DNA of 64,000 nt from Neisseriaceae bacterium (lineage in GTDB: Bacteria > Pseudomonadota > Gammaproteobacteria > Burkholderiales > UBA11063). Position 1 is the first letter of the stretch. Every line of letters starts with the position of its first letter. Under the pieces are notes generated by a model, which did no database searches, was not told the origin of the DNA, and worked only from the letters and a program-made list of their open reading frames with translations. Position numbers and translations under genes: made by a program. Below, piece by piece: positions 5,612 to 55,154 of this stretch. The stretch covers positions 89,107 to 153,106 of the forward strand of contig RXJX01000009.1 in the NCBI GenBank assembly GCA_003963245.1, in the 5' to 3' direction.

Positions 5612-5715
5612 CTGCCGGAATAAAACAGCAAGAACTAGACGTAAGGCGACGCGGTGTACGTGATAAGTACATAAGGAGCCTTACAACGACGTTATTGCTA
5701 TTTTACTCCGAGCAG
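5612..5715 (+). repeat. Structured intergenic repeat, copy 1
   Basis: About 104 bp that can fold as nested stems. Outer ends: GCCGGAATAAAACAGCAA against TTGCTATTTTACTCCGAGC. Inner stem P2: gtaaggc (5641-5647) with gccttac (5678-5684). Between them lie GACG, a tgtac/gtaca hairpin (5655-5671) and AAGGA. It shares GACG, AAGGA and AACGACG with the copies at 47.1 and 55.1 kb while stem bases differ in a compensatory way. It ends 7 nt beyond the stop codon of the minus-strand Bax-inhibitor gene, so it would form the 3' end of that mRNA. Confidence 0.75.
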
Positions 5716-5722
5716 ATACAAT

Positions 5723-6421
5723 CTATCTTCTGTCGTTACCAGACAATGCAATAATAATCTGTAACAAGCTGGTAAACAAATTGTACAAGCTAACATAAAT
5801 GCTCAATGTTGCAGAAATATAATTAGTTTCACCACCGATAATGATTTGGTTAACTTGCCATAAAATCATCAAAGATGAGAAAATAACAAATGCACCACAC
5901 AAGATTAACTGCATCATTGGCGTATGAAAGAAAATCATTGCAATCATTGAAATTAAAATTACAATTCCACCAATTGCCAAAAAGTTAGTCAAAAACGGAG
6001 TTTCGCGTTTAATTGTAAAAGCAATCGCGCTCATCACAAAAAATACTGCTGAAGTTAATATTGCCGCTAATAAAATCAGTTGGCTACCGTTTGGAATACG
6101 TAACGCCACCTGAAATAACGGACCCAATAACAAGCCCATCAAAAGCGTAAATGCCATCAACCACACGATTCCAGCAAAGCTATTACGATTTTTCTGTACC
6201 ATAAACATTAGGAAATACATTCCACCGATTAAAAGCAATGTACCCATAATCGGGCTGCCCAATAAAAAGGCAAATGACATATTAACCCCAATCAAAGCGC
6301 CGATTGCCGTTGGAATCATTGATAATGCTAATAATAAATAAGTATTCTTCAAAACTTGCTGGCGAATCTCTGCTGATGGCGCTGCCATTGCATATTGCTG
6401 CTGTTGATAATAGTTGTTCAT
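5723..6421 (-). CDS. Bax inhibitor-1 / YccA-family inner-membrane protein
   Basis: 232-residue polytopic membrane protein of the UPF0005 (Bax inhibitor-1, YccA/YbhL) family. After a short Gln/Tyr-rich cytoplasmic N-terminus (MNNYYQQQQYA) there are about seven hydrophobic segments from residue ~28 to the end. Family members in E. coli interact with the FtsH protease or act as leak channels; the role here is inferred from family only. I place the start at the ATG at 6421, preceded by GAGGA with 8-nt spacing, rather than the upstream TTG in frame. It stands alone, with structured repeat copy 1 directly after its stop codon. Confidence 0.85.
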   Translation of the reverse strand: MNNYYQQQQYAMAAPSAEIRQQVLKNTYLLLALSMIPTAIGALIGVNMSFAFLLGSPIMGTLLLIGGMYFLMFMVQKNRNSFAGIVWLMAFTLLMGLLLGPLFQVALRIPNGSQLILLAAILTSAVFFVMSAIAFTIKRETPFLTNFLAIGGIVILISMIAMIFFHTPMMQLILCGAFVIFSSLMILWQVNQIIIGGETNYISATLSIYVSLYNLFTSLLQIIIALSGNDRR

Positions 6422-6557
6422 ATATATTTTCCTCAATAAAAAACGTAGCTATCCTTGCTATTATATAGTACTTTGTAGTTAAAAATCAAGCGCCATTATA
6501 ATCATAAGCACCACAGCGCTCTGCTAAAACTTTATCTTTAAAGCACTAGCAAAGTGA

Positions 6558-9374
6558 TTAATTCACAAAATAATCAAAATAGCTGTCTAATAGTGGCGTT
6601 GTTAGACGCAAGATAAACTGCATAACGTTCTCGCTAGCAAGAGATTTTTCCTGATAACTATGAATATCTGCCAAACCAAGATAGTAATGCTCGCCTCCTT
6701 CATTATCGCTTTTTTTAAGAAAAATCATAATCTTAAGATTATTCTCTCGGTAATTAATAATCTTCATTAATTCGGGAGAAATTGTGGCGCCATAAGGACG
6801 AGAATACCAGACCAAATCTTGTGAATTAAGAAAAATATTATCATATTTGGCATTCATCTGGCTGGCTGAGATCTTTTTATAGGTAATAAAAATCGGTACA
6901 CTATTGGCAATAATTCGATAACCATAAATTGAAGTTTCCATCGACAGATTAACATTCAATAATCTAACCAGCTCTTTTCGCGAATACTTGTTATAAAGAA
7001 TAAAATCATTATCCTTACTAACTGGCTTATATTCTTCAAAATAACTTAAACCTAGCTTTATCGTTTGTAAAACTAATGCTTTAAAATCTGGATTTTCAAG
7101 GCTCTGATTAAAATCAGTGCTCAATCTGAATTGATTATCATCAGCATCAAGCAAACTTACTTGATATTTTTTTTGCAAGGCATTACTGGTTACAAGAGTC
7201 AAAATATTACGAATAGCAATTTGCTTTTGATTACTAATCTGAACGCCATATTCGCTAGCTAAATTGGCATAAATTAGGCTCTCATCATTACACCCTTCAA
7301 TTAAACTCAACAGCACATATAACTCATCTGGGCGAGCCGCAAAAAATAATTCTTGAGTAATATAATTAAGATATGCCAAACTGCTATCTGAAAACGTAAT
7401 TACACTATCATTATGATAATTGAGTAGCTCGTAGTAATTGTTATACAAGATTTTATTAGATTGATTTTGGTAACGAAAAATAATTTTGGGATCAATTGAA
7501 TTATGTACACGAAAATCAACCAACTCTGGAACGCGGTTTAATTTTTTCTTTAACTCCTGATAACTTTGATTAATAAACTTACGATTAATCTGAATATTGT
7601 TGATAGATTTATATATCCGTTCACGAGCAATCCGATCAAATGAAACAGAAACATTTGTAGGAATTAAAGAATTAGCTTCGCTGACGAATGAACGTAAGTC
7701 CTCTTTATTATATGAGTTATTTCCTGACAATGCTACTGCAATTAAAAAGCTACTCGCATAATTACCGATAAAGTCCAAAATCACACAATAATCTTTGTCT
7801 GGGCTTTTGCGTAACCCTCGTCCAAGCTGCTGGATAAATACAATAGCAGATTGCGTTGGTCTTAATAAAACGATCTGATTAACGCAAGGAATATCAATCC
7901 CTTCGTTAAAAATATCAACACTAAAAATATAATCAAGATATTCCTGTGGCTTGCCATTAGCATCATATAGTTGATTAGCTAAAAGCTGAATTGCGTTTTC
8001 TCGAGCACAATCATCGTCAGCACCACTTAAACTTAGCGTCTTATAACCAGCCAAATTAAAATAACGAGACAATTCATTCGCTTCTTCAACTCGTGAAACA
8101 AAGACTAAACCGCGCATCTTATCACTACCACCATGTCCATACAACTTGAGGTTGCTAATAATATGCTTTACCCGATCATTATAATTGAATTGATTAAAAC
8201 AGCTGTAATCATCCAGATAACTATCATTAACCATCAATTCAGAAATACCAAAATAATGGAAAGGACAGACCAGATTTTCTTCAAGCGCCTCATTTAAGCG
8301 AATCTCATAAGCTATATTATGATTAAATAATTGATAAATATCAAAATCATCACTGCGCTCAGGAGTAGCGGTCATCCCTAATAGAAATTTTGGGCGAAAA
8401 TGTTTAAGAATTTTTTGATAGCCAGCAGAACCAGCACGATGAACTTCGTCAATAACTATATAATCAAAGTGATCTGCCTCAAACTGATAGAGGTATTCAT
8501 CTTTCTGTAGGGTTTGTAGTGAAGCAAAAATGAAATCAGAAGCAAACTGCTTTAGTTCACCAGTTAATTTACCAGCTTTTAGTTGGGGAAAGATTTTAGA
8601 ATAGCTATGGATTGCAGCATTAAGAATGCTCTCGCGGTGAACAATAAAAAGTACTTTCTTAGCACCAAACTCTTTTACAGCAAAAGCGCTCAAATAAGTT
8701 TTACCACTTCCGGTGGCAGATATGATCAACGCCTTATTTTGCTTTTGCTTGCGTAATTCATCAAGTGCAGTCAAAGCTTTGCGCTGCATACTGTTTGGTA
8801 CTAGAGTTTCAGTAGTATTAGGGATAGCTTTCTCTAATTTAGCTCTCGTCAGCTCATACTTCTTTCGGTATTCCTCAAGTAATTCAGCACTCAATACTTG
8901 AGATTCAGCATAAACTTGCTGATATATTTCATCTATTTGCTGAGGAATCACTGCATCTTGAGAATACTCGAGATAAATATTAGTTTCAAAGTTACGTCGC
9001 AATGCATTATTAGTAAGATTTGAACTACCAATAATACACGATGAATGCCCATTTTTATGTTTAACGACGTATAATTTGGGATGATAACCAGAAATATCAG
9101 CAATACGCACTTCTAGATTATCAATCTGGCGCAAAAATTCAAAAACGCGTGGGCTATTAAAATTATTCATAAACCCAGTAATGATTACTACTTTCACTTG
9201 TTTATCAAGTAGCTCTTTCAATTCATTCAAAATCAGATATAAACCATCTGGGGTAATAAATGCAACCAGAATAATAACTTCAGCAATATCATCGGTTTTC
9301 AATAGATAGCTTAGTTTTGAATAGACATATTTTTTTTGTTTGGGTTGATTAGTTAATATTTCCTGCTGGTTCAT
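6558..9374 (-). CDS. PLD-type nuclease + DEAD/DEAH helicase + DUF3427 protein
   Basis: 938-residue fusion. Residues ~1-170 form a phospholipase-D-like (HKD) nuclease domain with HPKLYVVKHKNG and IIGSSNLTNNAL. Residues ~200-560 are a superfamily 2 helicase: motif I ATGSGKTYLS, DEVHRAGS (motif II), MTATPERSD (motif III), FNEGIDIP, and motif VI QQLGRGLRKSPDKD. The remaining ~370 residues correspond in position and content to DUF3427. This architecture (COG3886 + COG1061 + DUF3427) is widespread and often found among defence or mobile genes, but its function is not established. Genes on either side (yccA-like, nudC) are housekeeping. It could be a DNA repair or anti-phage enzyme. The catalytic residues seen are intact. 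Confidence 0.85.
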   Translation of the reverse strand: MNQQEILTNQPKQKKYVYSKLSYLLKTDDIAEVIILVAFITPDGLYLILNELKELLDKQVKVVIITGFMNNFNSPRVFEFLRQIDNLEVRIADISGYHPKLYVVKHKNGHSSCIIGSSNLTNNALRRNFETNIYLEYSQDAVIPQQIDEIYQQVYAESQVLSAELLEEYRKKYELTRAKLEKAIPNTTETLVPNSMQRKALTALDELRKQKQNKALIISATGSGKTYLSAFAVKEFGAKKVLFIVHRESILNAAIHSYSKIFPQLKAGKLTGELKQFASDFIFASLQTLQKDEYLYQFEADHFDYIVIDEVHRAGSAGYQKILKHFRPKFLLGMTATPERSDDFDIYQLFNHNIAYEIRLNEALEENLVCPFHYFGISELMVNDSYLDDYSCFNQFNYNDRVKHIISNLKLYGHGGSDKMRGLVFVSRVEEANELSRYFNLAGYKTLSLSGADDDCARENAIQLLANQLYDANGKPQEYLDYIFSVDIFNEGIDIPCVNQIVLLRPTQSAIVFIQQLGRGLRKSPDKDYCVILDFIGNYASSFLIAVALSGNNSYNKEDLRSFVSEANSLIPTNVSVSFDRIARERIYKSINNIQINRKFINQSYQELKKKLNRVPELVDFRVHNSIDPKIIFRYQNQSNKILYNNYYELLNYHNDSVITFSDSSLAYLNYITQELFFAARPDELYVLLSLIEGCNDESLIYANLASEYGVQISNQKQIAIRNILTLVTSNALQKKYQVSLLDADDNQFRLSTDFNQSLENPDFKALVLQTIKLGLSYFEEYKPVSKDNDFILYNKYSRKELVRLLNVNLSMETSIYGYRIIANSVPIFITYKKISASQMNAKYDNIFLNSQDLVWYSRPYGATISPELMKIINYRENNLKIMIFLKKSDNEGGEHYYLGLADIHSYQEKSLASENVMQFILRLTTPLLDSYFDYFVN

Positions 9375-9394
9375 TTCTGCACCATTATAAATTT

Positions 9395-10156
9395 CTAGTG
9401 CTTAGCGATAAAATCATCAATCAGGCGACTAGCAATCGAAAGATGGGTCGAAGGACGTCCGGGGATTTCATTTTTGGCAAAAAACCCAGCTGCACGCATT
9501 TCAGTGGTATCTAAAACAATTTCACCGCTTTCATATTCAGCAGTAAATGCAATCATCAACGAATTGGGAAATGGCCAATATTGCGAACCCCAGTATTGAA
9601 CATTTTTAATTTTGATGCCGACTTCTTCAAAGACTTCGCGATGCACGGTTTGTTCCAATGACTCGCCAACTTCACAAAAGCCGGCTAAGACACTCCACAT
9701 TTCGGGAGCAAAATGATTGGCTTGCGCCATTAATAATTTATTACCATGAGTAACTGCAACTATCATTGCTGGAGATATTCGCGGATAAATCTCATGCTCA
9801 CAATGACCGCAATGCAACCATTTACCTAAAGTAGATAAACTGGTTGCTTGTCCGCATGTTGAGCAGTAACGATTAGTCTCTTGATAAAACAGCATTTGTT
9901 CAGCATGAATGATCTTTTCAATCATTTCCATGCCAAAGAAATTTAATGCTTGACGGAGGTTAACCAAGCGCAGTTCAGGTAACAAGCTTAAATCAACATC
10001 AGGACTAATTGAACCCAAAATATTTATACCATCAACCTGAATCAGACTTGGCTGATAACTTAAGTTCTGTAATTGCGCACTATCTGGTAAATACCAACCA
10101 TCGCCAGTAGCAGCACGAGTTACCAGCAATGATTTAGCAGCAAAAATCAAATTCAC
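9395..10156 (-). CDS. nudC: NAD+ / NADH diphosphatase, Nudix family
   Basis: 253 residues. NudC hydrolyses NAD(H) to NMN(H) + AMP and removes NAD caps from RNA 5' ends. A zinc ribbon (CSTCGQ...CGHCE, residues ~98-120) precedes a Nudix box with G(F)CEVGESLEQTVHREVFEEVGI spacing at ~157-180 and the NudC signature SQYWPFPNSLM (canonical SQPWPFP, with P replaced by Y). The gene starts 3 nt after the dapD stop and ends 20 nt upstream of the helicase start, so dapD-nudC-helicase may be one transcript. Confidence 0.95.
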   Translation of the reverse strand: MNLIFAAKSLLVTRAATGDGWYLPDSAQLQNLSYQPSLIQVDGINILGSISPDVDLSLLPELRLVNLRQALNFFGMEMIEKIIHAEQMLFYQETNRYCSTCGQATSLSTLGKWLHCGHCEHEIYPRISPAMIVAVTHGNKLLMAQANHFAPEMWSVLAGFCEVGESLEQTVHREVFEEVGIKIKNVQYWGSQYWPFPNSLMIAFTAEYESGEIVLDTTEMRAAGFFAKNEIPGRPSTHLSIASRLIDDFIAKH

Positions 10157-10159
10157 AAT

Positions 10160-10972
10160 TTAAGCACGCAATAATTCATTAATTGAAGTTTTGCTACGGG
10201 TTTTTGCATCCACCCGCTTAACGATAATTGCCGCATAAGTAGAATGACCACCATCTGCACTAGGTAAACTACCTGATACTACTACTGAATACGCCGGAAC
10301 ACGTCCATAATAAGTTTCACCAGTTGTTCGATCATAAATGCGCGTTGATTGGCTAATGAATACTCCCATGCTGATTACTGAGCCTTCCTCGACAATCACG
10401 CCCTCAACCACCTCAGAGCGAGCACCGATAAAGCAATTATCTTCAATAATTGTAGGATTAGCCTGTAGTGGTTCTAGTACACCACCAATACCAACACCAC
10501 CTGATAGATGAACATTTTTACCAATTTGTGCACATGAACCAACCGTAACCCAAGTATCAACCATCGTTGCTTCATCAACATATGCACCGATGTTGACATA
10601 ACTAGGCATTAAAATCGCATTTTTGGCAATATATGAGCCTTTACGCACCAAAGCCCCTGGCACGACCCGGAAACCACCATTAGCAAAATCTGCTTCGCTA
10701 TAGTTTTCAAATTTTAGCGGAACTTTATCATAGAATTTGGTAAAGCCAGCCTCAACCACTTGATTTTGATTAAGTCTAAATGAAAGTAAAACCGCTTTCT
10801 TCAGCCACTGATGAGTCACCCATTCACCATTGATTTTTTCAGCAACCCGTGCCTTACCGCTGTCAAGTAACTCAAGAGCGGCATCGACTGCTTGACGCAA
10901 CTGAGCATCGCTGCTGTCTAATTCTGGTAATTTATTAAACGCCGCTTCAATAATACTTTGTAACTGCTGCAT
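10160..10972 (-). CDS. dapD: Tetrahydrodipicolinate N-succinyltransferase
   Basis: 270 residues. Succinylates 2,3,4,5-tetrahydropyridine-2,6-dicarboxylate in the succinylase branch of lysine/meso-diaminopimelate synthesis. The C-terminal two thirds show the left-handed beta-helix hexapeptide repeats ([33 protein letters not shown]). I place the start at [12 protein letters not shown] (10972) because GGAG lies 8 nt upstream and E. coli DapD starts the same way; ATGs at 10990 and 10978 are in frame but lie before or too near the Shine-Dalgarno. First gene of a probable dapD-nudC unit. Confidence 0.95.
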
Positions 10973-11112
10973 AGTCATGACTCCATCCAAAAATTTAATA
11001 CCGAATTATACCGCAGATGCTAGGGGATAACACATGTCTTATATGAAGATAGATTTAATTTTGGTAGTTTAATGTCGCAAACCTCGAGCTACTCATCGCA
11101 TCCACACTTAGA

Positions 11113-11733
11113 TTAAATATGATAAGCTGCTTTGGTCATAACTTTAGAACTTAAAGTCATTGCTTTCTTAATAGCTTCAGGTAATTCAGCAGCACCAAAA
11201 TCATGTGCCATATGTGCATGCTTAATCTCGTCTTCTTTCATCTGCTCTAAGATCGCCCTACTTTTATTGTCATGTGCAGGTAATTTTTCCAAATGATCCG
11301 CCAAATGCCCTTCAACTTGCTTTTCTGTTTCTTCAAGAAATCCAAGATTCCATTTATCCCCCAAAAGTCCAGCACTAATTCCAATAGCTAAACTTCCTGC
11401 ATAAAATAATGGATTAAGCAGACTCGTTTTACCACCCAATTCATGGATACGCTGCTCTGTCCAAGCCAGATGCTCAACTTCTTCATAAGCAGCATGAGCA
11501 AAGGCATCTTTATTGCTTTGATCACGAGCGGTAATTGCTTGTCCCTGATAAAGACCTTGAGCACAGATTTCACCGCAATGATTAATTCGCATTAAACCAA
11601 TAATATGCTTACGTTCTGCATCGCTAAATTCACCATCCTGAATGCTATTATCAGGATGCGGACGTTTGGATAAAGGTTTGTGGAATAAATTCTTAAAAAT
11701 TTTATCGACTTCTACGATTGCACGATCTAACAT
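11113..11733 (-). CDS. coq7: Coq7-type 2-nonaprenyl-3-methyl-6-methoxybenzoquinol hydroxylase
   Basis: 206-residue ferritin-like di-iron hydroxylase that performs the C6 hydroxylation in ubiquinone synthesis. The duplicated E...ExxH motifs are visible: MRINHCGEICAQGLYQGQA, YEEVEHLAWTEQRIHEL, EETEKQVEGHLADHLEKL and MKEDEIKHAHMAHDFGA. Length agrees with proteobacterial Coq7 (about 205-215). It implies aerobic respiration with ubiquinone. The gene is divergent from ppa across a 237-bp gap containing a structured element; no other ubiquinone gene is near. Confidence 0.95.
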   Translation of the reverse strand: MLDRAIVEVDKIFKNLFHKPLSKRPHPDNSIQDGEFSDAERKHIIGLMRINHCGEICAQGLYQGQAITARDQSNKDAFAHAAYEEVEHLAWTEQRIHELGGKTSLLNPLFYAGSLAIGISAGLLGDKWNLGFLEETEKQVEGHLADHLEKLPAHDNKSRAILEQMKEDEIKHAHMAHDFGAAELPEAIKKAMTLSSKVMTKAAYHI

Positions 11734-11813
11734 TTTACACCTACTCTTTTATTTTGTGCGCTCTCAAGAGCTTTTTTGTATAGACTAGAAGTATTTAACC
11801 CTTGAGCGCTAAG

Positions 11814-11877
11814 TGTCGAAAAAAAGATGAGGATGTGTACACAAATGTACATGACGAATCTTTTTTAAGTCACGACA
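11814..11877. repeat. Structured intergenic repeat, copy 6 (loop strands swapped)
   Basis: Lies between divergent coq7 and ppa. Perfect 9-bp inner stem AAAAAAGAT (11820-11828) / ATCTTTTTT (11858-11866), closed further out by TGTCG / CGACA. Inside are GAGGA (11829-11833), a TGTGTAC/GTACATG hairpin and GACGA (11853-11857). The same two loop motifs as in the other copies are present but on exchanged sides, which keeps the internal loop while flipping it. The A/T-flanked stem could also work as a bidirectional terminator. A further hairpin with GCGCTC/GAGCGC ends (11758-11809) lies just upstream. Confidence 0.55.
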
Positions 11878-11907
11878 AAGCACATGGTTTAAAGACGATT
11901 AGTATAT

Positions 11908-11937
11908 TTGCTTTTATGGATAATTCCAAGGTATAAT
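11908..11937 (+). promoter_or_regulatory. Probable sigma-70 promoter of ppa
   Basis: TTGCTT (11908-11913), an 18-nt spacer and TATAAT (11932-11937), located 33 nt before the ppa ATG. A Shine-Dalgarno AGGAG lies 6 nt before the start codon. Position and match to consensus make this one of the clearest promoters in the window. Confidence 0.6.
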
Positions 11938-11970
11938 TATACATCTTACAAACTTTTTTAGGAGTTCTTA

Positions 11971-12489: not shown

Positions 12490-12520
12490 ATATCTATAAA
12501 CTCAGATATTTGAATTAAAC

Positions 12521-12565
12521 AGCCCCTCAGCTATTTGACAGTAATTGAGGGGCTTAATTTTATTC
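12521..12565 (+). terminator. Rho-independent terminator of ppa
   Basis: Perfect 9-bp GC-rich stem AGCCCCTCA (12521-12529) / TGAGGGGCT (12546-12554), followed by TAATTTTATTCTT. Confidence 0.8.
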
Positions 12566-12589
12566 TTATAGTATATAGTTATAAGAACA

Positions 12590-12626: not shown

Positions 12627-12632
12627 TTAAAT

Positions 12633-41743: not shown

Positions 41744-41745
41744 CG

Positions 41746-47005: not shown

Positions 47006-47043
47006 GTCTTCCCTTATCTATAAAGTATTCTTCTAAAATGTAA

Positions 47044-47145
47044 CTGTTGAAATATGAAGCAAGAGTTAGGCGCAATGCGACGAAATGTACATGAGAAGCA
47101 CATGAGGAACATTGCAACGACGCTATTACAAAATAGTCCGAGCAG
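47044..47145 (+). repeat. Structured intergenic repeat, copy 3
   Basis: Ends CTGTTGAAATAT... and ...ATAGTCCGAGCAG. Inner stem P2 gcaatg (47072-47077) / cattgc (47110-47115), enclosing GACG, an atgtac/gcacat hairpin (one mismatch) and GAGGA; followed by AACGACG. Compared with copies 1 and 2 the P2 stem has changed on both sides and still pairs. It lies 6 nt after the stop of the minus-strand decarboxylase gene. Confidence 0.7.
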
Positions 47146-47151
47146 TTATCC

Positions 47152-48807
47152 TTATTTTTTCATTTTTGCAACAATGTCTGCCAACTTCTGTAATGCAGGT
47201 GGTTGCTTATATTTATCCATCATTACCTCAATCAAACACAGTTGATTGGCATGTGATTTAGTATCATTTAATGCCTCTACCAAACCTTTATCAGTGCTAA
47301 CCTGTCTGGTATAAGCCTCACCACCAAAAGCAGCTGGTAAACGCAAATAATTCCACTCCTGAATATCATTGTAGCTGGAATTTTTACCCAAAAAGATTCG
47401 TTCTATCGTATAGCCCGAGTTATTCAAAACTAAAATAATTGGTTTTAAACCATAGCGCAACTGGGTTGAGAGCGCTTGAACTGTCATCTGCAATGAGCCA
47501 TCACCCACGACTAAAATAGTCCGCCCCTTACTTTTGGCTAAGCTAATTCCGGTAGTTGCACCTAAAGCATAACCAATTGAAAACCAATTTACTGACGACA
47601 CAATTTTACAGCCATGAGGCAAAGTATAGTAGCCACTGGTAAATGCGATTGTTCCAGTTTCTAAAATTAATGTATCATCACTTTGTAAAAATTGACTAAG
47701 GCGATAAATCAGGTTATCATGCTCAATTTGTGGGGCTAATTGCTCTGGTTTGAGAAGATAATTTGCACTAAAATCACGTGGATAAGGTGCAATTTTTAAA
47801 TGGGAATGACATAAAGACTCAACTAAAGCAACAAATGGAATATCTGTATAGTCTGTACCATTAATCGTACCAGAGTTTAAATTTAGTATAATTAGTTTAT
47901 CTGGATCTAATTTGGCACTAAATGTCCCACTATTAATCTCACAATACAGCCACCCCAGCGCCAGAACACAATCCGCATTTTCAACATAATCCTGTACTTC
48001 TTGTGCCGAAAAACATCCAGCATACATCCCAGCAAATTGCGGATGAGATTCATCAACGACACCTTTCGCACCCCAACTTACAACATAAGCGGCACTACTA
48101 TCTTGTAGGAACTGCTGCACTAATGCCTGTAAATGATAACGTTCAACCAGTTCACCAACTAAAACCACTACTTTTTTAGCGTTACTTATTTGTACTTTAA
48201 TATCTTCGGTTAGCTCTGCGATTTTACTTACTTGCTCAGTAGTCGTTGGGTTAACTAGATTTAATTTTGCTTGTGGCGCTGCAATCAGGTGCGTAACTAA
48301 ATCTTGTGGAAACTGTAAATATACCGGACGTTTGTGCTGATAGCAACTCTCAATCAAACGATCAATTTGTGCACCGGGATCATCAAAATTTAAAATCTCT
48401 GCAGCGCAGGTAATTTGTTGATAAATCTTAAGTGACTGATCATAAGCTCCATTCAATAAGGTATGATGAAGCGGTAAATTCTTCGCCTGTTTAGCAAGTG
48501 CAATACCACCAGTTATTTTAATCAGCGGGATATGCTCAGAATACGCACCGGCAACACCATTAACCGCGCTAAGTTCTCCCGGACCATAAGTAGTAACCAA
48601 GGCACTAATTCCATGTTCACGAGCATAACCATCGGCAGCATAAGAAGCATTTAGTTCGTTACATTCACCTATCCAACGAAACCTCTCATCATGTTCAATT
48701 AATTCGACCAAATCCAAATTAAAATCACCTGGAACACCAATGATATTTTCGATACCCAACTCCGCCAAGCGACGAAATAAATATTCTGCAACCGTTATTA
48801 ATTGCAT
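47152..48807 (-). CDS. ThDP-dependent alpha-keto-acid decarboxylase (indolepyruvate/phenylpyruvate/pyruvate decarboxylase family)
   Basis: 551 residues. Non-oxidative decarboxylase with the catalytic Glu in the NIIGVPGDFNLDLVELIEHD / FRWIGECNELNASYAADGYA segment, HH pair in LPLHHTLLNG, and the ThDP/Mg motif VVGDGSLQMTVQALSTQLRY...LNNSGYTIE near 430-465. The HH pair and length place it with pyruvate/indolepyruvate decarboxylases rather than acetolactate synthases. Which keto acid it prefers cannot be told; indole-3-acetaldehyde or fusel aldehyde formation are possible. No partner genes adjacent. Structured repeat copy 3 follows its stop. Confidence 0.88.
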   Translation of the reverse strand: MQLITVAEYLFRRLAELGIENIIGVPGDFNLDLVELIEHDERFRWIGECNELNASYAADGYAREHGISALVTTYGPGELSAVNGVAGAYSEHIPLIKITGGIALAKQAKNLPLHHTLLNGAYDQSLKIYQQITCAAEILNFDDPGAQIDRLIESCYQHKRPVYLQFPQDLVTHLIAAPQAKLNLVNPTTTEQVSKIAELTEDIKVQISNAKKVVVLVGELVERYHLQALVQQFLQDSSAAYVVSWGAKGVVDESHPQFAGMYAGCFSAQEVQDYVENADCVLALGWLYCEINSGTFSAKLDPDKLIILNLNSGTINGTDYTDIPFVALVESLCHSHLKIAPYPRDFSANYLLKPEQLAPQIEHDNLIYRLSQFLQSDDTLILETGTIAFTSGYYTLPHGCKIVSSVNWFSIGYALGATTGISLAKSKGRTILVVGDGSLQMTVQALSTQLRYGLKPIILVLNNSGYTIERIFLGKNSSYNDIQEWNYLRLPAAFGGEAYTRQVSTDKGLVEALNDTKSHANQLCLIEVMMDKYKQPPALQKLADIVAKMKK

Positions 48808-48867
48808 GGTAACCTCACTTTACTCTATACATAACAAACTTTTTTCAGTACGATAACGCTAGAATTC

Positions 48868-49266
48868 TCAGCTCGACGAAGATACCCAAATGTTACGTTT
48901 TTGTTGAATAACCCAATTAACTTCATTCCTACGCAGCTGCCAAATCACCCAAATTCGCCCCTGAAAATCCAACTGAATCGCGACAGGTTGATCGACTAGA
49001 TTGGGTAAATAGTTTTGCACCAGATTATTATTGTCTGGACCACGAATTACCGATGAAGGACTCATTGCCAACTTACTCGTCGAAAGCAGCATCATTCCAA
49101 GTAATGAGCTACCCCAGTTACTCGGTATTTCTTGTACAATAACCTGAGGATAATTAACCTCTTTAATCGTCGCAAAAATTGCATTTGCCGGAAACTGACG
49201 TACATCATCTGCAAATCCCACTAACGAATACAGGAATAGTAGAGTAAAAGTTATAAAACGCATCAT
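48868..49266 (-). CDS. Secreted protein of unknown function
   Basis: 132 residues with a clear signal peptide (MRFITFTLLFLYSLVGFA, cleavage before DD). The mature ~112 residues are mixed beta-type and end WVIQQKRNIWVSSSS, with many Trp near the C-terminus (GRIWVIWQLRRNEVNWVIQQ). I recognise no family. A TTAGG ribosome-binding site fits the second ATG (49263) as well as the first. It begins 4 nt after the SIMPL-domain gene stop, so it is in the same operon and may work with it in the envelope. Confidence 0.6.
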   Translation of the reverse strand: MMRFITFTLLFLYSLVGFADDVRQFPANAIFATIKEVNYPQVIVQEIPSNWGSSLLGMMLLSTSKLAMSPSSVIRGPDNNNLVQNYLPNLVDQPVAIQLDFQGRIWVIWQLRRNEVNWVIQQKRNIWVSSSS

Positions 49267-49270
49267 TAGC

Positions 49271-49981
49271 CTAATTTAAGAAAAATTGAATAGAAGTAAC
49301 CACGCGTACTTTTTTATTGATATTGCTGGTATCACCAACATTTGAACCATCCGGCGAAGATATGGTAAATACTCCCTGACTGGCAGATTTGATTTTACCA
49401 ACCTGAGATTGAGTGTTTTTTGCAAAAGTTTCAGCTGCAGACTTAGCATTCTGGGTTGCACTATCTAGCATCCCAGCCTTGATACTATTGAGATTATTAT
49501 AAAAATAGCTGATGCTATTATTAGTAACAATCACGCCTTGATTTACCAATTCACCAGCATTCTGACTAACTTTGGCTACTAAATCAACGTTAGAGGTAGT
49601 AACACTCACACTATTGCTAATTTGATAATGAGGTAGCTTAGCATTGCTATTACCATATTGATTTGCCCAGTTGTCATTAACACTAATTGTGCCTAATTGG
49701 ATGTCTTTTGCTGCAAAACCATTAGTTGCCAAAAATTGGCTTACTGTTTTTTGATTAAGATTCACTTGCTGATATAAAGCTTTGAGATCATCGCCACTTA
49801 CGCTAAAATTAATACTCCAAGTTGCCAAGTCTGATTTAACATTTTGTTCTGCCAAACCCTTAACTTCAACCGAGCGATCAAAGTTGCGGAAAAATTTGAT
49901 CCCTTCACCAATATAATGCCCACTAGCTGCAATTCCGACCGCTAAAATTATAGCTCCAATAACTCTGCTACCTGAATTCAT
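49271..49981 (-). CDS. SIMPL-domain (DUF541) envelope protein
   Basis: 236 residues. N-terminal signal anchor (VIGAIILAVGIAASGHYIGE) and a SIMPL/DUF541 domain from ~30 to the end: VEVKGLAEQNVKSDLATWSI, then a KTVSQFLATNGFAAKDIQLG segment and SVSVTTSNVDLVAKV. E. coli YggE is the best-known member (oxidative-stress related); Brucella BP26 is a periplasmic antigen. Function is not settled. Located 17 bp after the hydrolase gene and 4 bp before the secreted protein gene. Confidence 0.88.
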   Translation of the reverse strand: MNSGSRVIGAIILAVGIAASGHYIGEGIKFFRNFDRSVEVKGLAEQNVKSDLATWSINFSVSGDDLKALYQQVNLNQKTVSQFLATNGFAAKDIQLGTISVNDNWANQYGNSNAKLPHYQISNSVSVTTSNVDLVAKVSQNAGELVNQGVIVTNNSISYFYNNLNSIKAGMLDSATQNAKSAAETFAKNTQSQVGKIKSASQGVFTISSPDGSNVGDTSNINKKVRVVTSIQFFLN

Positions 49982-49998
49982 GATCTTCTCCTACGTGA

Positions 49999-50850
49999 TT
50001 AAATTAGAAATTGTGCAATTCGTGCTAAGTGCTCTTCCCTATATAAATATGGCGAATGTCCAGCATCTTTTACTGTCAACATCTCGGTTTGTGGGTTCTG
50101 ATGCTGCATTTTGTGTAAAGTTGTGGTACTCAGTAAATCAGAATGTGCACCGTGGATAACCAGCGTCGGCGCAGTTACATGCTCCCAAAAACTCCAAAAC
50201 TCAAGATTATCATTACCACTCATTGTTGATGCCAGACTGGTTGCTAACCGTAAATCACGTTTTAACTCCCAACGACCGCTCTGATTCTTCTGAAACGAAT
50301 TGACAAACATATGCTGCCAGATTTCTTCCTGATGAATACCATCACTTAAAGACAGACTTCGTAAATACTCACAAGCTTCAGAGTATGTTGCAAAATCTGG
50401 TTGCTGGACACTATAGCCAGCAATTCGGGCAACCCCAGCAAATTCAACTTCAGCACCAATATCTGATAAAACTAGTTTGCGAATCTTGTTTTGTGGTAGG
50501 CTGGCAAGCATTATACCCAAAATACCACCTAAAGAAACACCCAAAAAATCAAATTTAGTAATTTGTAGCTGGTGTAATAAAGCAGTTAAATCCGCAATGT
50601 TGCATTCTACGCTATAGCCACGTGGATCACTCAAATAGTCACTATTCCCACGCCCCGGTAAATCGGGGGCAATTACATAATAACCATGCGAAACCATTTT
50701 AGCTGCAACAAAATCAAAGTCGCGACTATTACGGTTTAACCCATGAACACAAAGCAAAATTTTTTCTGCATCAGGATTGCCCCATGCAGAATAACTGATG
50801 CGATATTTTTCTTCAAATTGATTAACACGTTCAATATAATTAGTATGCAT
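49999..50850 (-). CDS. Alpha/beta-fold hydrolase
   Basis: 283 residues. Canonical alpha/beta hydrolase: oxyanion HGLNRNSRDFD, GRGNSDYLSD, nucleophile elbow LGVSLGGILG (Ser ~107), acid in LVIHGAHSDLL and catalytic His in VKDAGHSPYLY (~264). Similar to esterases or C-C hydrolases; substrate unknown. First gene of the hydrolase-SIMPL-secreted protein unit; a structured repeat lies 17 bp upstream of its start. Confidence 0.9.
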   Translation of the reverse strand: MHTNYIERVNQFEEKYRISYSAWGNPDAEKILLCVHGLNRNSRDFDFVAAKMVSHGYYVIAPDLPGRGNSDYLSDPRGYSVECNIADLTALLHQLQITKFDFLGVSLGGILGIMLASLPQNKIRKLVLSDIGAEVEFAGVARIAGYSVQQPDFATYSEACEYLRSLSLSDGIHQEEIWQHMFVNSFQKNQSGRWELKRDLRLATSLASTMSGNDNLEFWSFWEHVTAPTLVIHGAHSDLLSTTTLHKMQHQNPQTEMLTVKDAGHSPYLYREEHLARIAQFLI

Positions 50851-50867
50851 TACAAATACTTTCTACT

Positions 50868-50975
50868 CTAGACTCTTCGTCTTTGAATCTTGAACTTTGT
50901 CGGATTTCAAAAAAGACTCCCTATGTAGTTCTAGCTACACTACGTCGTCTTTTTTATCAATCCTTCGCTCTAGAG
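50868..50975 (-). repeat. Structured intergenic repeat, copy 5 (terminator-like, opposite orientation)
   Basis: Read on the minus strand: CTCTAGAG end, then AAAAAAGAC (plus 50947-50955), GACG, a TGTAG/CTACA hairpin, GGGA, and GTCTTTTTT (plus 50909-50917), with the 9-bp stem perfect, and a closing CTAGAG. Same architecture as copies 1-4 but with an A/U stem, so it could act as a terminator in both directions. It begins 2 nt after the stop codon of the quinone-oxidoreductase-like gene. Confidence 0.65.
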
Positions 50976-50977
50976 AA

Positions 50978-51976
50978 TCAAATACTTCGAGTATATGTTG
51001 TACAATTTATAACAATTTTTCCGGGGTAGCTATTTTTCTGTAAATCAGCAAATGCTTGAGCAAAATCTGTCAGTGGATATTCTCGGATTGCGGGAATTTG
51101 CTGAGATTTTTTTAAGAGACGAATCAACTCATCACCCATCACTGCTAAATCGCATTGCGAAGGATAATGACCGGATAAATATGCACCACCCAAAGCCACT
51201 TCGTGAAAACCAATTCCACTACTAAACTCCGGAATCTCGCGAGTATCTAAAATACCAATAATCGAAGCAATTTGCCCATTAAACGCTAAAATGCTAGGAT
51301 CTCGTTGCAAATTTTCACGAGTAGTAGTTTCCAAAATATAATCAACGCCCCGTGGACATAATTCGCGAAGTTTGGCGTAAATGTCAGCATTAGTATAATC
51401 CAAGACGATATCAGCACCCAAGGAACTCACATAATTCAGATTCTTAGTTGAGCATGTACTGATAACCTGCAACCCCAGTACTTTAGCAATTAAAATTGCA
51501 AAACTGCCAACACCGCCACTCCCACCTTGAATAAAAATGCTGCGCCCAGCCCGAATATTCATTTTACGAACTAAAGCCTGATACGCAGTTAGCCCCGCAC
51601 ATGGCAAAGCAGCAGCTAAAACTAAATCGAAATTATTAGGTATCCTAAAAAGAACATGTTCTGGTTGAACACAGTATTCTGCTAGCGCCCCACCATAGGT
51701 TAAATTGCTATGTAGTGCTACTATATCACCGATATGAAAATTACTCTTTGCTGGATTGCCAAGTTTGATTACTTCTCCAACCAGATCTAAACCAGGAATA
51801 TATGGGTATTGCCAAAATGAAGGTTTTGCCGCAATTAATTTATAATCAACTGGATTAAGACTAGCATAGCGTGTGCGTAATAATACCTGTCCCTCATCAG
51901 GAACAGGTATTGCCAATTGGATCAAAGACAAATCTGTAAGACTGTCTTTAGGAGAATGCACAACAACTGCACGCAC
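50978..51976 (-). CDS. Zinc-independent MDR-family NADPH oxidoreductase (quinone reductase-like)
   Basis: 332 residues of the medium-chain dehydrogenase/reductase superfamily. GroES-like N-terminal domain (LRTRYASLNPVDYKLIAAKP, YIPGLDLVGEVIKLG), Rossmann domain with IFIQGGSGGVGSFAILIAK (~145-165). The structural-zinc cysteine cluster is missing, which fits quinone reductases or enoyl reductases. Substrate unknown. It begins 12 nt after the lpoB-like gene and ends directly before structured repeat copy 5. Confidence 0.88.
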   Translation of the reverse strand: MRAVVVHSPKDSLTDLSLIQLAIPVPDEGQVLLRTRYASLNPVDYKLIAAKPSFWQYPYIPGLDLVGEVIKLGNPAKSNFHIGDIVALHSNLTYGGALAEYCVQPEHVLFRIPNNFDLVLAAALPCAGLTAYQALVRKMNIRAGRSIFIQGGSGGVGSFAILIAKVLGLQVISTCSTKNLNYVSSLGADIVLDYTNADIYAKLRELCPRGVDYILETTTRENLQRDPSILAFNGQIASIIGILDTREIPEFSSGIGFHEVALGGAYLSGHYPSQCDLAVMGDELIRLLKKSQQIPAIREYPLTDFAQAFADLQKNSYPGKIVINCTTYTRSI

Positions 51977-51988
51977 AACTAGCTCATT

Positions 51989-52579
51989 TTAATAAGTTTT
52001 AGCTTTGGAGATGTTTTTCTCATTACGCCAGATTGCAGCACCTTGCTGTACATCAAATACCTGAACAAAGAAGGTATATGAAACTAATGTAGTTTTACCA
52101 TCTGGTCCAACTGAAGTATCACTGGTTAATTTACCATCTACACGACATTGAGCACCTTTCATTTTACCAGTCTTAGCAGTAGTTGATTGGTCGTATAAGC
52201 CAGATTGATTTTGACGTTCTAATTCATCAACCTGATTTTGCATTTCCTGAGTTGAAACTACATAAGTTGAATTAACTGCTGATGAATTAGACAATTTATC
52301 TGCCATCGCATTAGTCATCACTGAGGTATCTACATATTGATCTGTTGAGTTTTTAACTGGTGAAATTGTATAAGATTTACATTTGTTCATTTTACCGCTT
52401 TGGATCAACTGAGTTGACATATCCTGAGCGACTGCACGTAAATCATTTTGATTAAAATTAGTAGTCAGATTATTTACCGCATTAGGATCAACATAAGAAA
52501 TCTTTGGGTTAGCACAAGCACCTAAAAATACAGCTGTGCTTACTAGAGATAATTGTAATAATTTAGTTTTCATTTTCAT
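51989..52579 (-). CDS. LpoB-like penicillin-binding protein activator lipoprotein
   Basis: 196 residues. Lipobox FLGAC (Cys21), then FNQNDLRAVAQDMSTQLIQS, a VTTxV-type DTSVMTNAMADKL segment and CRVDGKLTSDTSVGPDGK...YTFFVQVFDVQQGAAIWRNEK; this matches LpoB, which in E. coli spans the peptidoglycan to activate PBP1b. It is third in a lipoprotein trio with a YcfL-like and a COG3014-like gene; the same trio is found in Vibrio and relatives. Betaproteobacterial cases are less familiar to me. Preceded by a 14-bp gap. Confidence 0.85.
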   Translation of the reverse strand: MKMKTKLLQLSLVSTAVFLGACANPKISYVDPNAVNNLTTNFNQNDLRAVAQDMSTQLIQSGKMNKCKSYTISPVKNSTDQYVDTSVMTNAMADKLSNSSAVNSTYVVSTQEMQNQVDELERQNQSGLYDQSTTAKTGKMKGAQCRVDGKLTSDTSVGPDGKTTLVSYTFFVQVFDVQQGAAIWRNEKNISKAKTY

Positions 52580-52593
52580 CCTTTACTATAATA

Positions 52594-52974
52594 TTAATTA
52601 TATACCGTTACGTTACTTGCATCATTTGAAAATTCAATTTTGAAATCAGTCGCTTCAAGCTGCGTTGCTTGACATTTGACTGGTTGGTCTTCATTTGGAT
52701 AAATAGTTATCAACTGCCATTGTTCAGCATCACCAACTTGCATCTTGTTTGCATCGTAGAATTGACAACGGTAATATCCTTGCGCAGCTTTGCTACCTGT
52801 ATTATGGAAATATCCTTGCGCAATTAATAAACCATTTACCCGCACTGAGGTCATTTTGGTAACTTTTACATTGCCCATATCACCGACTTCAACTACATGA
52901 TCTTTGATTCGGTTGGTACTACACGCACTAAGAAGAACGCCAGCTCCCATCAAACTACATATCAATTTTTTCAT
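52594..52974 (-). CDS. YcfL-family (DUF1425) lipoprotein
   Basis: 126 residues. Lipobox LLSAC (Cys18), mature DUF1425 domain: VNGLLIAQGYFHNTGSKAAQ, then GYYRCQFYDANKMQVGDAEQ, ending YPNEDQPVKCQATQLEATDF. In E. coli ycfL lies next to lpoB as here. The domain is an Ig-like fold of unknown activity. It abuts the COG3014-like gene (stop/start adjacent, 52974/52975) and precedes lpoB by 14 bp. Confidence 0.85.
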   Translation of the reverse strand: MKKLICSLMGAGVLLSACSTNRIKDHVVEVGDMGNVKVTKMTSVRVNGLLIAQGYFHNTGSKAAQGYYRCQFYDANKMQVGDAEQWQLITIYPNEDQPVKCQATQLEATDFKIEFSNDASNVTVYN

Positions 52975-54381
52975 TTAACTGCCTTTTTGAAGATTAAATA
53001 TAATTTGACTACCAATTACCCTAAATGTAACAATCTGATATGGCTGATTAAGTGTAATTGACTGAGTGTGCGAAACACCATTAATAGTTACGGTTATCTT
53101 ATGCATACCATAAGCTAAATTATTTACTCGATTAATATAAATTTTACTTGGTAATAAGGTCCAAGTTCGTTCGTCAGCTCGATCTAAAAGCATGCCACCC
53201 AAGCTTGTACCAAGGCTTAATATCGTACCTAGCGAACCACCATTATTGCCTGCAGTACATGCTGCCTGAGAACTAGCGATATTGCGCACTGCAGCTGCGA
53301 CATTCCGCGCAATAATATGTGGTGTCTGATCGCGGATTGAACGCGCCACCATTAAATTTACATCAACCATCAGCAGCGGATTATAATTGGTATTATCGAG
53401 CGAAAACGAATACGGCATAGTATTTAAGCGATCCATAATCAACCGCGGATAAAACACATCAATCATATTGATACATGATTGTTGATTGTTTTGCGAGGCA
53501 CTAAAATTCAAATTAATCGGTACATGAATTTCTTCGGATTTGATCTGCGGTGCATGCCCCAATTCCTCGACGATCAATAAATCGGTAGTTCCTTTTTTGG
53601 AACGAATGTTACTATCAACATTATCGATACTTTGTTGAATTAATGTATTATTGGGGTTTAATTGACCAGCTTTGACATATCCCGGACGTGATAAACTTGG
53701 CTCATTCAATGCTTCAAAAACAAATCCAGCCAAATAATGACTAAAGGCATTTTGATAGCTATTTTTCAATGCCAATACTTGCGGGGTATTTATATCCGTG
53801 AAATTATATTTTTTAAGAATCTGCGTTGACAAATAGTTTTGCTGATTGTCTTGCTTCATCTTTTGGAATTCTTGAGCTTCCTGATTATATAACGCTTGAT
53901 TATAATTCTCCGTAGCTTGTTCAATCTGGTACATCCGCTTAATTTCAACTCGCGCATTTTCCCAGTTATTCAGATCAAGATGATTTAATGCATGATAGGT
54001 GGATAAGAAACTTCGTTCATAACCACGAGGTTGATATTCAGTAGCATTATCATTAACTAACATGGATAGTGCGGTATTACTTAATTCACCACCTGTAGTG
54101 CTCATCCAGCTATTTGCCCAGACATCTACACTTTGTTGTGCTAAGCTAAAATAATAGTTACTTTGGGAATAATTTTGATCCATGCGCAATAAGCTACCAT
54201 ATTCCATATTATATAATGGGTCGCTGGTACTTTCTGCCTCCATTGCCACAGGTAATTGTCCACTATAGATTTTATGCAAAGTCGCATCGCTAGTATTTTT
54301 ATAAGAACTAAATGGATTACTCGCGCATGAACAAAGCGATACCAGCGCAATTGGCAACAACAAATTTTGAAATAATTTCAT
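52975..54381 (-). CDS. COG3014-family outer-membrane lipoprotein
   Basis: 468 residues. Lipobox SLCSC (Cys20), then helical TPR-like segments (~40-230; MEYGSLLRMDQNYSQSNYYF, HALNHLDLNNWENARVEIKR, FSHYLAGFVFEALNEPSLSR) and a glycine-rich region near 375-395 (NNGGSLGTILSLGTSLGGML) that could be a membrane-inserting element, followed by a beta-rich C-terminus. The COG3014-YcfL-LpoB order supports a shared envelope or cell-wall role. It starts 26 nt after the cdd stop. Confidence 0.82.
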   Translation of the reverse strand: MKLFQNLLLPIALVSLCSCASNPFSSYKNTSDATLHKIYSGQLPVAMEAESTSDPLYNMEYGSLLRMDQNYSQSNYYFSLAQQSVDVWANSWMSTTGGELSNTALSMLVNDNATEYQPRGYERSFLSTYHALNHLDLNNWENARVEIKRMYQIEQATENYNQALYNQEAQEFQKMKQDNQQNYLSTQILKKYNFTDINTPQVLALKNSYQNAFSHYLAGFVFEALNEPSLSRPGYVKAGQLNPNNTLIQQSIDNVDSNIRSKKGTTDLLIVEELGHAPQIKSEEIHVPINLNFSASQNNQQSCINMIDVFYPRLIMDRLNTMPYSFSLDNTNYNPLLMVDVNLMVARSIRDQTPHIIARNVAAAVRNIASSQAACTAGNNGGSLGTILSLGTSLGGMLLDRADERTWTLLPSKIYINRVNNLAYGMHKITVTINGVSHTQSITLNQPYQIVTFRVIGSQIIFNLQKGS

Positions 54382-54407
54382 CAGGTTATACTTTAAGATT
54401 TTAATAA

Positions 54408-54893
54408 TTAATGCTGGAGAAACGATTCACTATATGCTAGTGGCAACATTGAATGTACTCCAGTTGCGATGTAAATTTTACCAGACTGACCAGCCATAAT
54501 TACTCGCATCGCGTGCCCTGATTTATCTTCAGCTTCAAGCAACAATTGCCGGCATTTACCACATGGCGTAATCGGAAAATCACTACTAGTACCCGGGTTC
54601 ATATTTTTAAAAGTTACTGCAATGCTCTCAATAGTAAACTCGCGAAAGAGCGAATGAAGTTCCAATAACAGATTTTGCTCAGCACAAGTTATAATCGAAG
54701 TATTCTCTTTATTACTGCTAGTATAAATTGAACCATCACTAAGCCTTGCTGCAGTTCCTACATTAAAATGAGAAAACTGCGGTGAGGCATGAGTAACCGC
54801 TTCATCTGCTCGCTTTAATAATTCAGCATCAGCAATATTTAACTCATCTCGTGACGAAAATTCTTCATAAGTAAATTGAATAACCTTTTGCAT
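54408..54893 (-). CDS. cdd: Cytidine deaminase
   Basis: 161 residues. Zn-dependent deamination of cytidine/deoxycytidine to uridine/deoxyuridine. Zn site: TCAEQNLLLE (Cys, catalytic Glu) and ITPCGKCRQLLLEAE (two Cys); SHFNVGTAARLSDGSIYTSS is the substrate region. Homotetrameric short-type length. Start placed at MQKVIQF (54893) because GGAG lies 6 nt before it; the in-frame TTG upstream is less likely. With the two uridine kinases it completes cytidine salvage. Confidence 0.93.
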   Translation of the reverse strand: MQKVIQFTYEEFSSRDELNIADAELLKRADEAVTHASPQFSHFNVGTAARLSDGSIYTSSNKENTSIITCAEQNLLLELHSLFREFTIESIAVTFKNMNPGTSSDFPITPCGKCRQLLLEAEDKSGHAMRVIMAGQSGKIYIATGVHSMLPLAYSESFLQH

Positions 54894-54953
54894 AACCATC
54901 TCCAATTTTCTAATTAAATGATGATGTTCATAATAACAATGTTATACTAGAAC

Positions 54954-55039
54954 AGATTCAAAATACTAGTAGGCGCTTTGCGACGATGCCTACAACACGT
55001 AGGTGAGGAGCAAAGCAACAACCTAGGATTGATCAATCT
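54954..55039 (+). repeat. Structured intergenic repeat, copy 4
   Basis: Outer ends AGATT...CTAG / CCTAG...AATCT, inner stem P2 gctttgc (54975-54981) / gcaaagc (55010-55016), enclosing GACG, a gcctac-aacac-gtaggt hairpin (54988-55004) and GAGGA, then AACAACC. All stems differ from the other copies but remain complementary. It lies 15 bp from copy 2, in the leader of cdd. Confidence 0.7.
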
Positions 55040-55053
55040 ATTTTATAGTATAG

Positions 55054-55154
55054 CTGCTGGAATATGGTGCAAAAACTAGGCGCAAGGCGACGCAATGTAC
55101 TAAAAAGTACATAAGGAGTCTTGAAACAACGTTATTGCTCCATAGTCCAAGCAG
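55054..55154 (+). repeat. Structured intergenic repeat, copy 2
   Basis: Ends CTGCTGGAATATGGTGCAA / TTGCTCCATAGTCCAAGCAG are an imperfect inverted repeat. Inner stem P2 gcaaggc (55082-55088) / gtcttg (55118-55123), enclosing GACG, an atgtact/agtacat hairpin (55095-55112) and AAGGA; then AAACAACG. Highly similar to copy 1, with paired changes in the outer stem (AAAACAGCAA versus TATGGTGCAA with their partners). It ends 5 nt after the gyrB stop codon. Confidence 0.75.

What the first reader, a model, noticed from the sequence alone, without database searches (positions are those of the whole stretch)
5612..55154. A dispersed family of structured intergenic elements with covarying stems
Six intergenic copies (5612-5715, 11814-11877, 47044-47145, 50868-50975, 54954-55039, 55054-55154) share one architecture: a stem P2, then GACG, then a hairpin (TGTAC/GTACA or similar), then (A/G)AGGA or GGGA, then the other side of P2, then AAC(A/G)AC in copies 1-4. 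P2 differs in every copy yet stays paired: gtaaggc/gccttac, gcaaggc/gtcttg, gcaatg/cattgc, gctttgc/gcaaagc, AAAAAAGAC/GTCTTTTTT, AAAAAAGAT/ATCTTTTTT. Copies 1-3 also have inverted-repeat ends CTGCYGGAATA...TAGTCCRAGCAG with paired changes. Paired substitution with a fixed loop suggests selection for structure: an RNA element or a protein-bound hairpin spread as a mobile palindrome (REP/MITE-like). I know no named family with this loop.
Basis: partly seen in the sequence, partly recalled or inferred. Interest (0 to 1): 0.8.

Follow-up and report, generated by a model that had tools for sequence, protein, structure and literature searches.

The report
Shared hairpin in unrelated mini-transposons
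Six short repeats in this bacterial genome belong to three families of tiny, probably mobile elements (one family carries clear footprints of jumping) that all share one hairpin; the same hairpin sits in repeats of many other bacteria and likely serves the elements' own spread rather than the neighbouring genes.

Summary
A covariance model of the core finds all six copies and 45 in the whole genome (E<=1e-3), and 2-64 per genome in 11 of 23 genomes of the genus (Aquella, by a chromosome-length match). Stems covary far above shuffled and slid controls. The copies form three families (A, B, C) with different outer arms and one apical hairpin: P2, loop GACGnn/nnAGGA, stem GTGTAC. Family A is a non-autonomous transposon: GTAA... 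inverted ends and 8-bp target-site duplications (15 of 40 copies match at >=7 of 8 bases; 0.55 expected). An IS66-type element with similar ends exists in a sister genome. B and C end in TATACTC...GAGTATA, suggesting another transposase. The core recurs in Alpha-, Beta- and Gammaproteobacteria, Actinomycetota and a Verrucomicrobia bin, and in Correia-like elements of G306's genus; its exact pattern was in no viral contig. No Rfam family was matched in the DNA tested; no REP transposase was found in the genome. In 9 of 10 orthologous pairs no compensatory change is seen, so structure is probably kept in the moving lineage, not by host function. What reads the hairpin is unknown. Family A lies antisense in 38 of 45 tandem contexts; the cause is unresolved.

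The parts
5608..5719 (+). Copy 1, family A (inner hairpin; core 5630-5689), between the uvrB start and the stop codon of a YccA-like gene
   Evidence: orthologous copy in G014, site without the element in other relatives
11779..11906 (+). Copy 2, family B variant with exchanged loop strands (core 11811-11869), between divergent coq7-like and inorganic pyrophosphatase genes
   Evidence: (E 1.7e-5, not in training)
47040..47149 (+). Copy 3, family A (core 47061-47120), between pyrF and a thiamine-diphosphate decarboxylase-like gene
50869..50995 (-). Copy 4, family B (core 50906-50964), P2 AAAAAAGAC/GTCTTTTTT, between an oxidoreductase-like and a hydrolase-like gene
54943..55052 (+). Copy 5, family C (core 54964-55021), ends TATACTA...TAGTATA
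55050..55158 (+). Copy 6, family A (core 55071-55129), abutting copy 5, next to the gyrB stop codon
5524..5550 (-). Terminator-like hairpin beyond the YccA-like gene; copy 1 lies between stop codon and this hairpin
   Evidence: consensus scan; a comparable hairpin follows the stop codon directly in several relatives without the element

Best explanation
The six copies belong to three families of short, likely non-autonomous transposons (MITEs) with different ends, which share one apical hairpin that is probably kept because it helps the elements propagate. Shown: family A has inverted ends (GTAACTACTC...GAGCAGTTAC) and 8-bp target-site duplications; A, B and C carry the same core, P2 - GACGnn - (G)TGTAC hairpin - nnAGGA - P2'; the stems covary between copies; in family A the GACG strand is predicted to fold more stably than its complement. 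Inferred: A is moved in trans by an IS66-type transposase (ends and duplication length fit, and such an element with similar ends is present in G014); B and C are moved by another enzyme at TA sites. Inferred mechanism of the hairpin: in single strands exposed by replication or transcription the GACG strand folds, brings the ends together and presents a loop to a conserved factor, which raises the rate of spread; after insertion a copy decays almost neutrally.
For: Copy number and spread: 45 copies at E<=1e-3 in the genome; 11 of 23 genus genomes; 23 of 300 order genomes by R1, 6 of the 23 in the genus; 10 of 398 phylum genomes by the generic model R2, own genome included. Mobility of A: 15 of 40 placed copies with >=7 of 8 bases duplicated, versus mean 0.55 and maximum 5 in 10,000 shuffled pairings (four ortholog pairs are among the 40, and one per pair leaves 13 of 36); site without the element in G013, G007, G017, G020, with it in G000 and G014. 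Structure. Strand: GACG strand more stable in 46 of 60 (RNA parameters) and 56 of 60 (DNA parameters) A copies. Structure little maintained in place: 10 ortholog pairs, 334 base pairs, 11 single changes that touch an unpaired state and 9 that keep pairing; all 4 double changes that keep pairing come from one locus, 3 double changes do not keep it. IS66: G014 C58 carries a DDE_Tnp_IS66 gene between ends GTAACCACTCAGCCTAT and GTAACCACTCAGCCCAT, 12-14 of 17 identical to the A ends. A copy with both ends but no inner hairpin exists (L333; partial losses in L321, L337).
Against: No pair of A ends 0.7-3 kb apart was found in four genomes at up to 2 mismatches (my reading of its list; the G014 IS66 element shows only one end at that cut, and three of the four assemblies are in pieces), and no IS66 transposase match in G000 or G017, so the mobilizer is not seen where many copies are. 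The core recurs under wholly different arms across phyla, which a simple end-synapsis hairpin would not need. Family A's orientation bias is not explained by this mechanism. No 8-bp duplication was found for B and C (24 copies printed before the script stopped; best match at any small offset 7 of 8 in one copy, 6 or fewer in the rest). At copy 1 the G000/G014 pair does show four compensatory changes. The ortholog test rests on 20 single changes.
Confidence: 0.5

Rival explanations
1. A host-serving RNA element: the transcript of each copy folds in the 3' or intercistronic region of mRNA and is bound or cut (for example by RNase III) to set mRNA stability; selection on that RNA keeps the stems.
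For: Strong covariation; family A lies behind stop codons mostly in one orientation, 38 of 45 tandem contexts, 31 of 38 with one copy per ortholog pair, p=1.2e-4; four compensatory changes at copy 1; Correia elements in mRNA are reported RNase III sites (PMC2649163, passages read).
Against: In the favoured orientation the mRNA carries the strand predicted to be less stable; G-T (70) and A-C (51) mismatches are nearly balanced outside the first P3 pair; 9 of 10 orthologous pairs show no compensatory change; families B (3:4) and C (8:5) show no clear orientation bias.
Confidence: 0.25
2. Stems are kept paired by mutation, not selection: template switching during replication copies one arm onto the other (quasi-palindrome correction).
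For: Long imperfect hairpins; paired changes of short blocks (AGC/GCT, AGT/ACT, AAC/GTT, AAT/ATT in family A, read); hairpin deletions at several copies.
Against: The mechanism would also mend the internal loops, yet GACG/AGGA is kept across phyla (rows chosen by that loop); orthologous copies show few correction events.
Confidence: 0.12
3. REP-type palindromes moved by a Y1 (RAYT) transposase.
For: Short intergenic palindromes with a strand-specific hairpin.
Against: No PF01797 match in the genome, 5 of 14 control genomes ring; 8-bp duplications and inverted ends are not Y1 features (established knowledge, recalled).
Confidence: 0.03
4. Bidirectional intrinsic terminators (A-tract stem T-tract), at least for family B and for alphaproteobacterial copies.
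For: P2 AAAAAAGAC/GTCTTTTTT in B; A/T-tract outer stems in alphaproteobacterial copies (read by eye).
Against: Family A has no T-tract at its end and lies inside tandem gene pairs; a terminator needs no conserved internal loop.
Confidence: 0.1

Closest known systems
Correia repeat enclosed element (CREE/NEMIS), Neisseria
   Same: Short palindromic MITE with a directional core (PMC2649163, passages). R1 hits in 7 of 40 genomes of G306's genus; of the 12 loci printed 8 begin with TATAGTGGATTAA and the others with variants of it. That these are Correia-type ends, and that the genus is Neisseria or near it (DUS-like words), is recalled. TA targets are reported for CREE.
   Different: Window families have other ends (GTAACTACTC; TATACTC) and A has 8-bp duplications. 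Whether the standard 104-157 bp CREE carries the full core was not tested.
IS66-family insertion sequences and their MITEs
   Same: GTAA ends and 8-bp duplication (the family rule is recalled); an IS66 element with ends 12-14 of 17 identical to those of family A is in G014.
   Different: Family A is about 110-140 bp with a large structured hairpin; no IS66 match in G000 or G017.
REP/BIME sequences with RAYT
   Same: Intergenic palindromes, strand-specific hairpin (recalled).
   Different: No Y1 transposase match in the genome; inverted ends and duplications present.
Rickettsia palindromic elements (RPE)
   Same: Palindromic repeats that can lie inside reading frames; here an in-frame core-like stretch occurs in a metH-like gene of G005 and in open frames of alphaproteobacterial bins.
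   Different: Not compared by sequence; features read in passages of a review (PMC2229807).

Membership tests
MITE (non-autonomous DDE transposon) | Short and multicopy | tested here: met
   109-128 bp in the window, 45 copies in the genome
MITE (non-autonomous DDE transposon) | Terminal inverted repeats | tested here: met
   Family A GTAACTACTCATAC / GTAACTGCTCGGACTAT; B and C TATACTC/GAGTATA
MITE (non-autonomous DDE transposon) | Target-site duplication | tested here: met
   Family A: 15 of 40 at >=7/8. Families B and C: no 8-bp duplication in 24 copies, a TA duplication possible but not shown
MITE (non-autonomous DDE transposon) | Sites with and without the element among relatives | tested here: met
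   Copy 1 site only
IS66-derived MITE (family A) | Ends and duplication length as IS66 | tested here: met
   GTAA ends, 8 bp; the rule is recalled
IS66-derived MITE (family A) | Autonomous partner with the same ends in the same genome | tested here: not met
   No PF03050 match in G000 or G017; in G014 an IS66 element with similar, not equal, ends
Correia element | TATAGTGGATTAA-type ends | tested here: not met
   Not in window copies; exact at 8 of 12 printed hits in G306's genus
REP/RAYT | Y1 transposase gene in the genome | tested here: not met
Any Rfam 15 family | Score at gathering threshold | tested here: not met
   Window and 18 loci: no match at a copy. In E-value mode the best match over a copy was a miRNA model at E 0.069 in 20 short loci and a plastid model at E 2.7 at copy 1, both far below threshold
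Selected RNA/ssDNA hairpin | Covariation above background | tested here: met
   the shuffles ignore phylogeny, the slid controls keep it
Selected RNA/ssDNA hairpin | Compensatory change at orthologous copies | tested here: inconclusive
   1 of 10 pairs
Selected RNA/ssDNA hairpin | Expressed RNA from the constrained strand | not testable with these tools
   no RNA-seq held

The most novel reading that the evidence does not exclude
One structural module, the GACG/AGGA hairpin, is a cross-phylum 'mobility hairpin': MITEs that depend on different transposases (8-bp IS66-like and TA-type) in Proteobacteria, Actinomycetota and others have each kept or recruited it because a conserved cellular factor recognises it on one DNA strand (or its RNA) and boosts their spread.
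Probability: 0.3. Interest if true: 0.85.

Novelty: new variant of a known kind. Interest (0 to 1): 0.62.

Why it matters
MITEs are usually described family by family and their interiors treated as filler. Here families with unrelated ends, in distant bacteria, share a covarying hairpin for which no Rfam model scored. That gives a ready search model, a testable idea (does the hairpin raise transposition in trans?), and a possible route to why Correia-type repeats have a conserved directional core.

Tried and rejected
REP/RAYT: no PF01797 match. Known RNA family: none at threshold. DNA-uptake word: the most overrepresented 8-10-mers of the window do not look like one. Plasmid copies: none by blastn of copy 1. 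Viral copies: 0 stretches for the exact loop pattern in viral contigs. Autonomous A element by paired ends: none in G017, G000, G014, G020 at up to 2 mismatches. Orientation explained by replication: in G017 (A. oligotrophica by length), taking the origin by dnaA near 208 kb and the terminus opposite (assumed), 19 of the 26 copies listed (33 found there) point against the fork, counted by eye; gene direction is confounded and I could not separate the two. A GT-versus-AC strand test gave only a weak lean (70:51) apart from the first P3 pair, 38:0. Paper searches for a cross-family hairpin in bacterial repeats listed nothing that by title or abstract start describes it; I read passages of PMC2649163, PMC10969869 and PMC2229807, the rest only as listings. 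The library holds open-licence papers only.

Rows dropped: L067 was left out of A3 because MAFFT misplaced it; A3 holds 24 of the 89 pattern hits with room on both sides (near-duplicates removed) plus 7 added by hand; 5 of 65 rows were left out as misaligned; one search kept them. In one search one locus of 20 (G012) could not be placed. Family calls differ between (62 A copies outside reading frames, 46:7) and the stricter (56 A, 18 B, 19 C, 11 unassigned; the unassigned are 9:0 antisense); I use.

Full report
1. The observation. The six stretches were read. A covariance model R1 (60 positions, 13 pairs, 31 sequences found mostly by blastn in the genus) hits all six window copies, including the 11814 copy that was not used to build it (E 2.7e-4 for the genome). 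In the own genome there are 45 hits at E<=1e-3 and 52 at E<=1. In the genus 11 of 23 genomes have hits, with 2 to 64 copies each; near-complete G012, G007 and G004 have none.

2. Which organism. Genome G017 has one contig of 2,820,660 bases, the chromosome length given for Aquella oligotrophica P08T in the abstract start of PMC6612550 (search listing). The window genome lies in the same genus. Equal contig lengths also tie G014 to JAIEPY01, G020 to SSGX01 and G022 to JAGOUD01.

3. Structure. In A1 (30 distinct rows) 96.7% of cells pair, 9 of 13 pairs have a change on both sides, covariation score 0.427 against 0.167 in shuffles and at most 0.087 when slid. In the P3 stem TGTAC/GTACA versus TTTAC/GTAAA is a paired change. 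For a cross-phylum test I took copies by a pattern that fixes loop and P3 and only the last base of P2, removed near-duplicates (24 of 89 kept) and added 7 from other calls: P2 pairs in 80.7% of cells, 9 of 9 P2 pairs have double changes, whole-structure score 0.535 against 0.173. Slid controls pair 26-56%. The shuffles do not correct for relatedness; the slid controls do. P3 is not an independent test in that set.

4. Three families, one core. Oriented copies from four genomes show, by eye, family A (GTAACTGCCGGAATATGAAGC...CTATTGCAAAATAGTCCGAGCAGTTAC), B (TATACTCATAGTATTTGATTCTTGGACGCGAAGGATTGATAAAAAAGAC...GTCTTTTTTGAAATCCGACAAAGTCCAAGATTCAAAGACGAAGAGTATA) and C (TATACTCAAACTGATTCGAAATACTAGTAGGCG...CAACGACCTAGGATGATGAATCTGATTGAGTATA). 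Window: 5608, 47040 and 55050 are A, 50869 (minus) and 11779 are B, 54943 is C. A and C also share the second loop TAGGCG/CAACGA; B does not. Family A shows further paired blocks (AGC/GCT, AGT/ACT, AAC/GTT, AAT/ATT).

5. Mobility. Family A has an outer left end GTAACTACTCATAC about 26 bases before the inner hairpin, matching the complement of its right end. Of 40 copies where both ends could be placed, 15 are flanked by 8-mers equal in at least 7 positions, 8 of them exact; shuffled pairing gives 0.55 on average and at most 5 in 10,000 trials. Four ortholog pairs are among the 40; one per pair leaves 13 of 36. At copy 1 the element lies between the stop codon and a terminator-like hairpin in G000 and G014, while G013, G007, G017 and G020 have stop codon and hairpin without it. 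One copy has both ends but no inner hairpin (L333; partial losses in L321 and L337). B and C have TATACTC...GAGTATA ends, compatible with a TA duplication, but no 8-bp duplication in the 24 copies printed.

6. Mobilizer. DDE_Tnp_IS66 matches in 6 of 23 genus genomes, some of them short fragments, not in G000 or G017. In G014 such a gene lies between inverted ends GTAACCACTCAGCCTAT and GTAACCACTCAGCCCAT, 12-14 of 17 identical to the A ends. That IS66 elements begin with GTAA and make 8-bp duplications is recalled. At up to 2 mismatches no pair of A ends 0.7-3 kb apart was seen in four genomes; one end of the G014 IS66 element is in that list.

7. Spread beyond the genus. R1: 23 of 300 genomes of the order, 13 of 134 genera, own included; several hits near E 1e-4 to 1e-3 may be chance. 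R2 (generic core): 10 of 398 genomes of the phylum, own included; five of them have only matches at E 3e-4 to 1e-3 and may be chance. Bins may be misassigned, but S. rosea is a complete chromosome with matches at three places. The same pattern found nothing in viral contigs. In G306's genus 7 of 40 genomes have hits; 8 of the 12 loci printed begin with TATAGTGGATTAA, which I recall as the Correia end.

8. Which strand, and where selection acts. The GACG strand is predicted to fold more stably than its complement in 46 of 60 A copies with RNA and 56 of 60 with DNA parameters. The first P3 pair is G-T in 38 of 60 copies and never A-C; elsewhere G-T 70, A-C 51. Ten orthologous pairs give 334 comparable base pairs: 4 double changes that keep pairing, all in copy 1, 3 double changes that do not, 9 single changes that keep pairing and 11 that involve an unpaired state. 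So most resident copies look close to neutral, and the covariation probably built up in the lineage of moving copies. This rests on few changes, and the window's own copy 1 is the exception.

9. Position. Family A lies antisense in 38 of 45 tandem contexts (31 of 38 with one copy per ortholog pair, p=1.2e-4); in 41 of 56 A copies an antisense gene ends within 45 bases beyond the core, often at the element's right end. B 3:4 and C 8:5 show no clear bias; unassigned copies are 9:0 (genes are open frames chosen by length, not annotated). Among the 58 placed pattern loci, 17 have an antisense gene end 33-49 bases beyond the core against 2 with a sense gene there; 3 of the 17 are from JAIEPY01 and many others from related bins. 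The cause (target choice, replication direction, or loss of the other orientation) is open.

10. Reading. Membership: family A is a MITE, likely IS66-moved; B and C are MITE-like. It is not a REP family by the test made, and scored in no Rfam family. The unusual part is the shared hairpin across families with different ends. I commit to a role in the elements' own spread; the binding factor is unknown.

Noticed in passing
L102:7407-7452, L199 and L186 (G632): Copies of the core lie in rRNA operon spacers: between 16S and a tRNA in Chromobacterium amazonense, and beside what looks like tRNA-Ala and the start of 23S in G632 (read by eye).
   Followed up: partly
L135, L139, L112 (alphaproteobacterial bins): The core is read through in frame in open frames whose product goes on to a pilin-like GRSMVEMLGVLAIIGV stretch; Pfam gives no match for these frames.
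   Followed up: partly
L010:1483-1545 (G005): A core-like stretch lies in frame in a metH-like gene (named by eye) between conserved blocks, reminiscent of coding palindromes in Rickettsia.
   Followed up: partly
L132, L142, L146, L156, L162, L165: Head-to-tail copies about 88-125 bases apart occur outside the window genome.
   Followed up: no
window 11779-11906; L252; L285:557: B variants with the two strands of the internal loop exchanged (the third in a degenerate form), as if the loop itself is the unit that matters.
   Followed up: partly
L063: An IMG/VR contig encodes a GyrB 64% identical to the window's over residues 2-800; it may be chromosomal DNA filed as viral.
   Followed up: no
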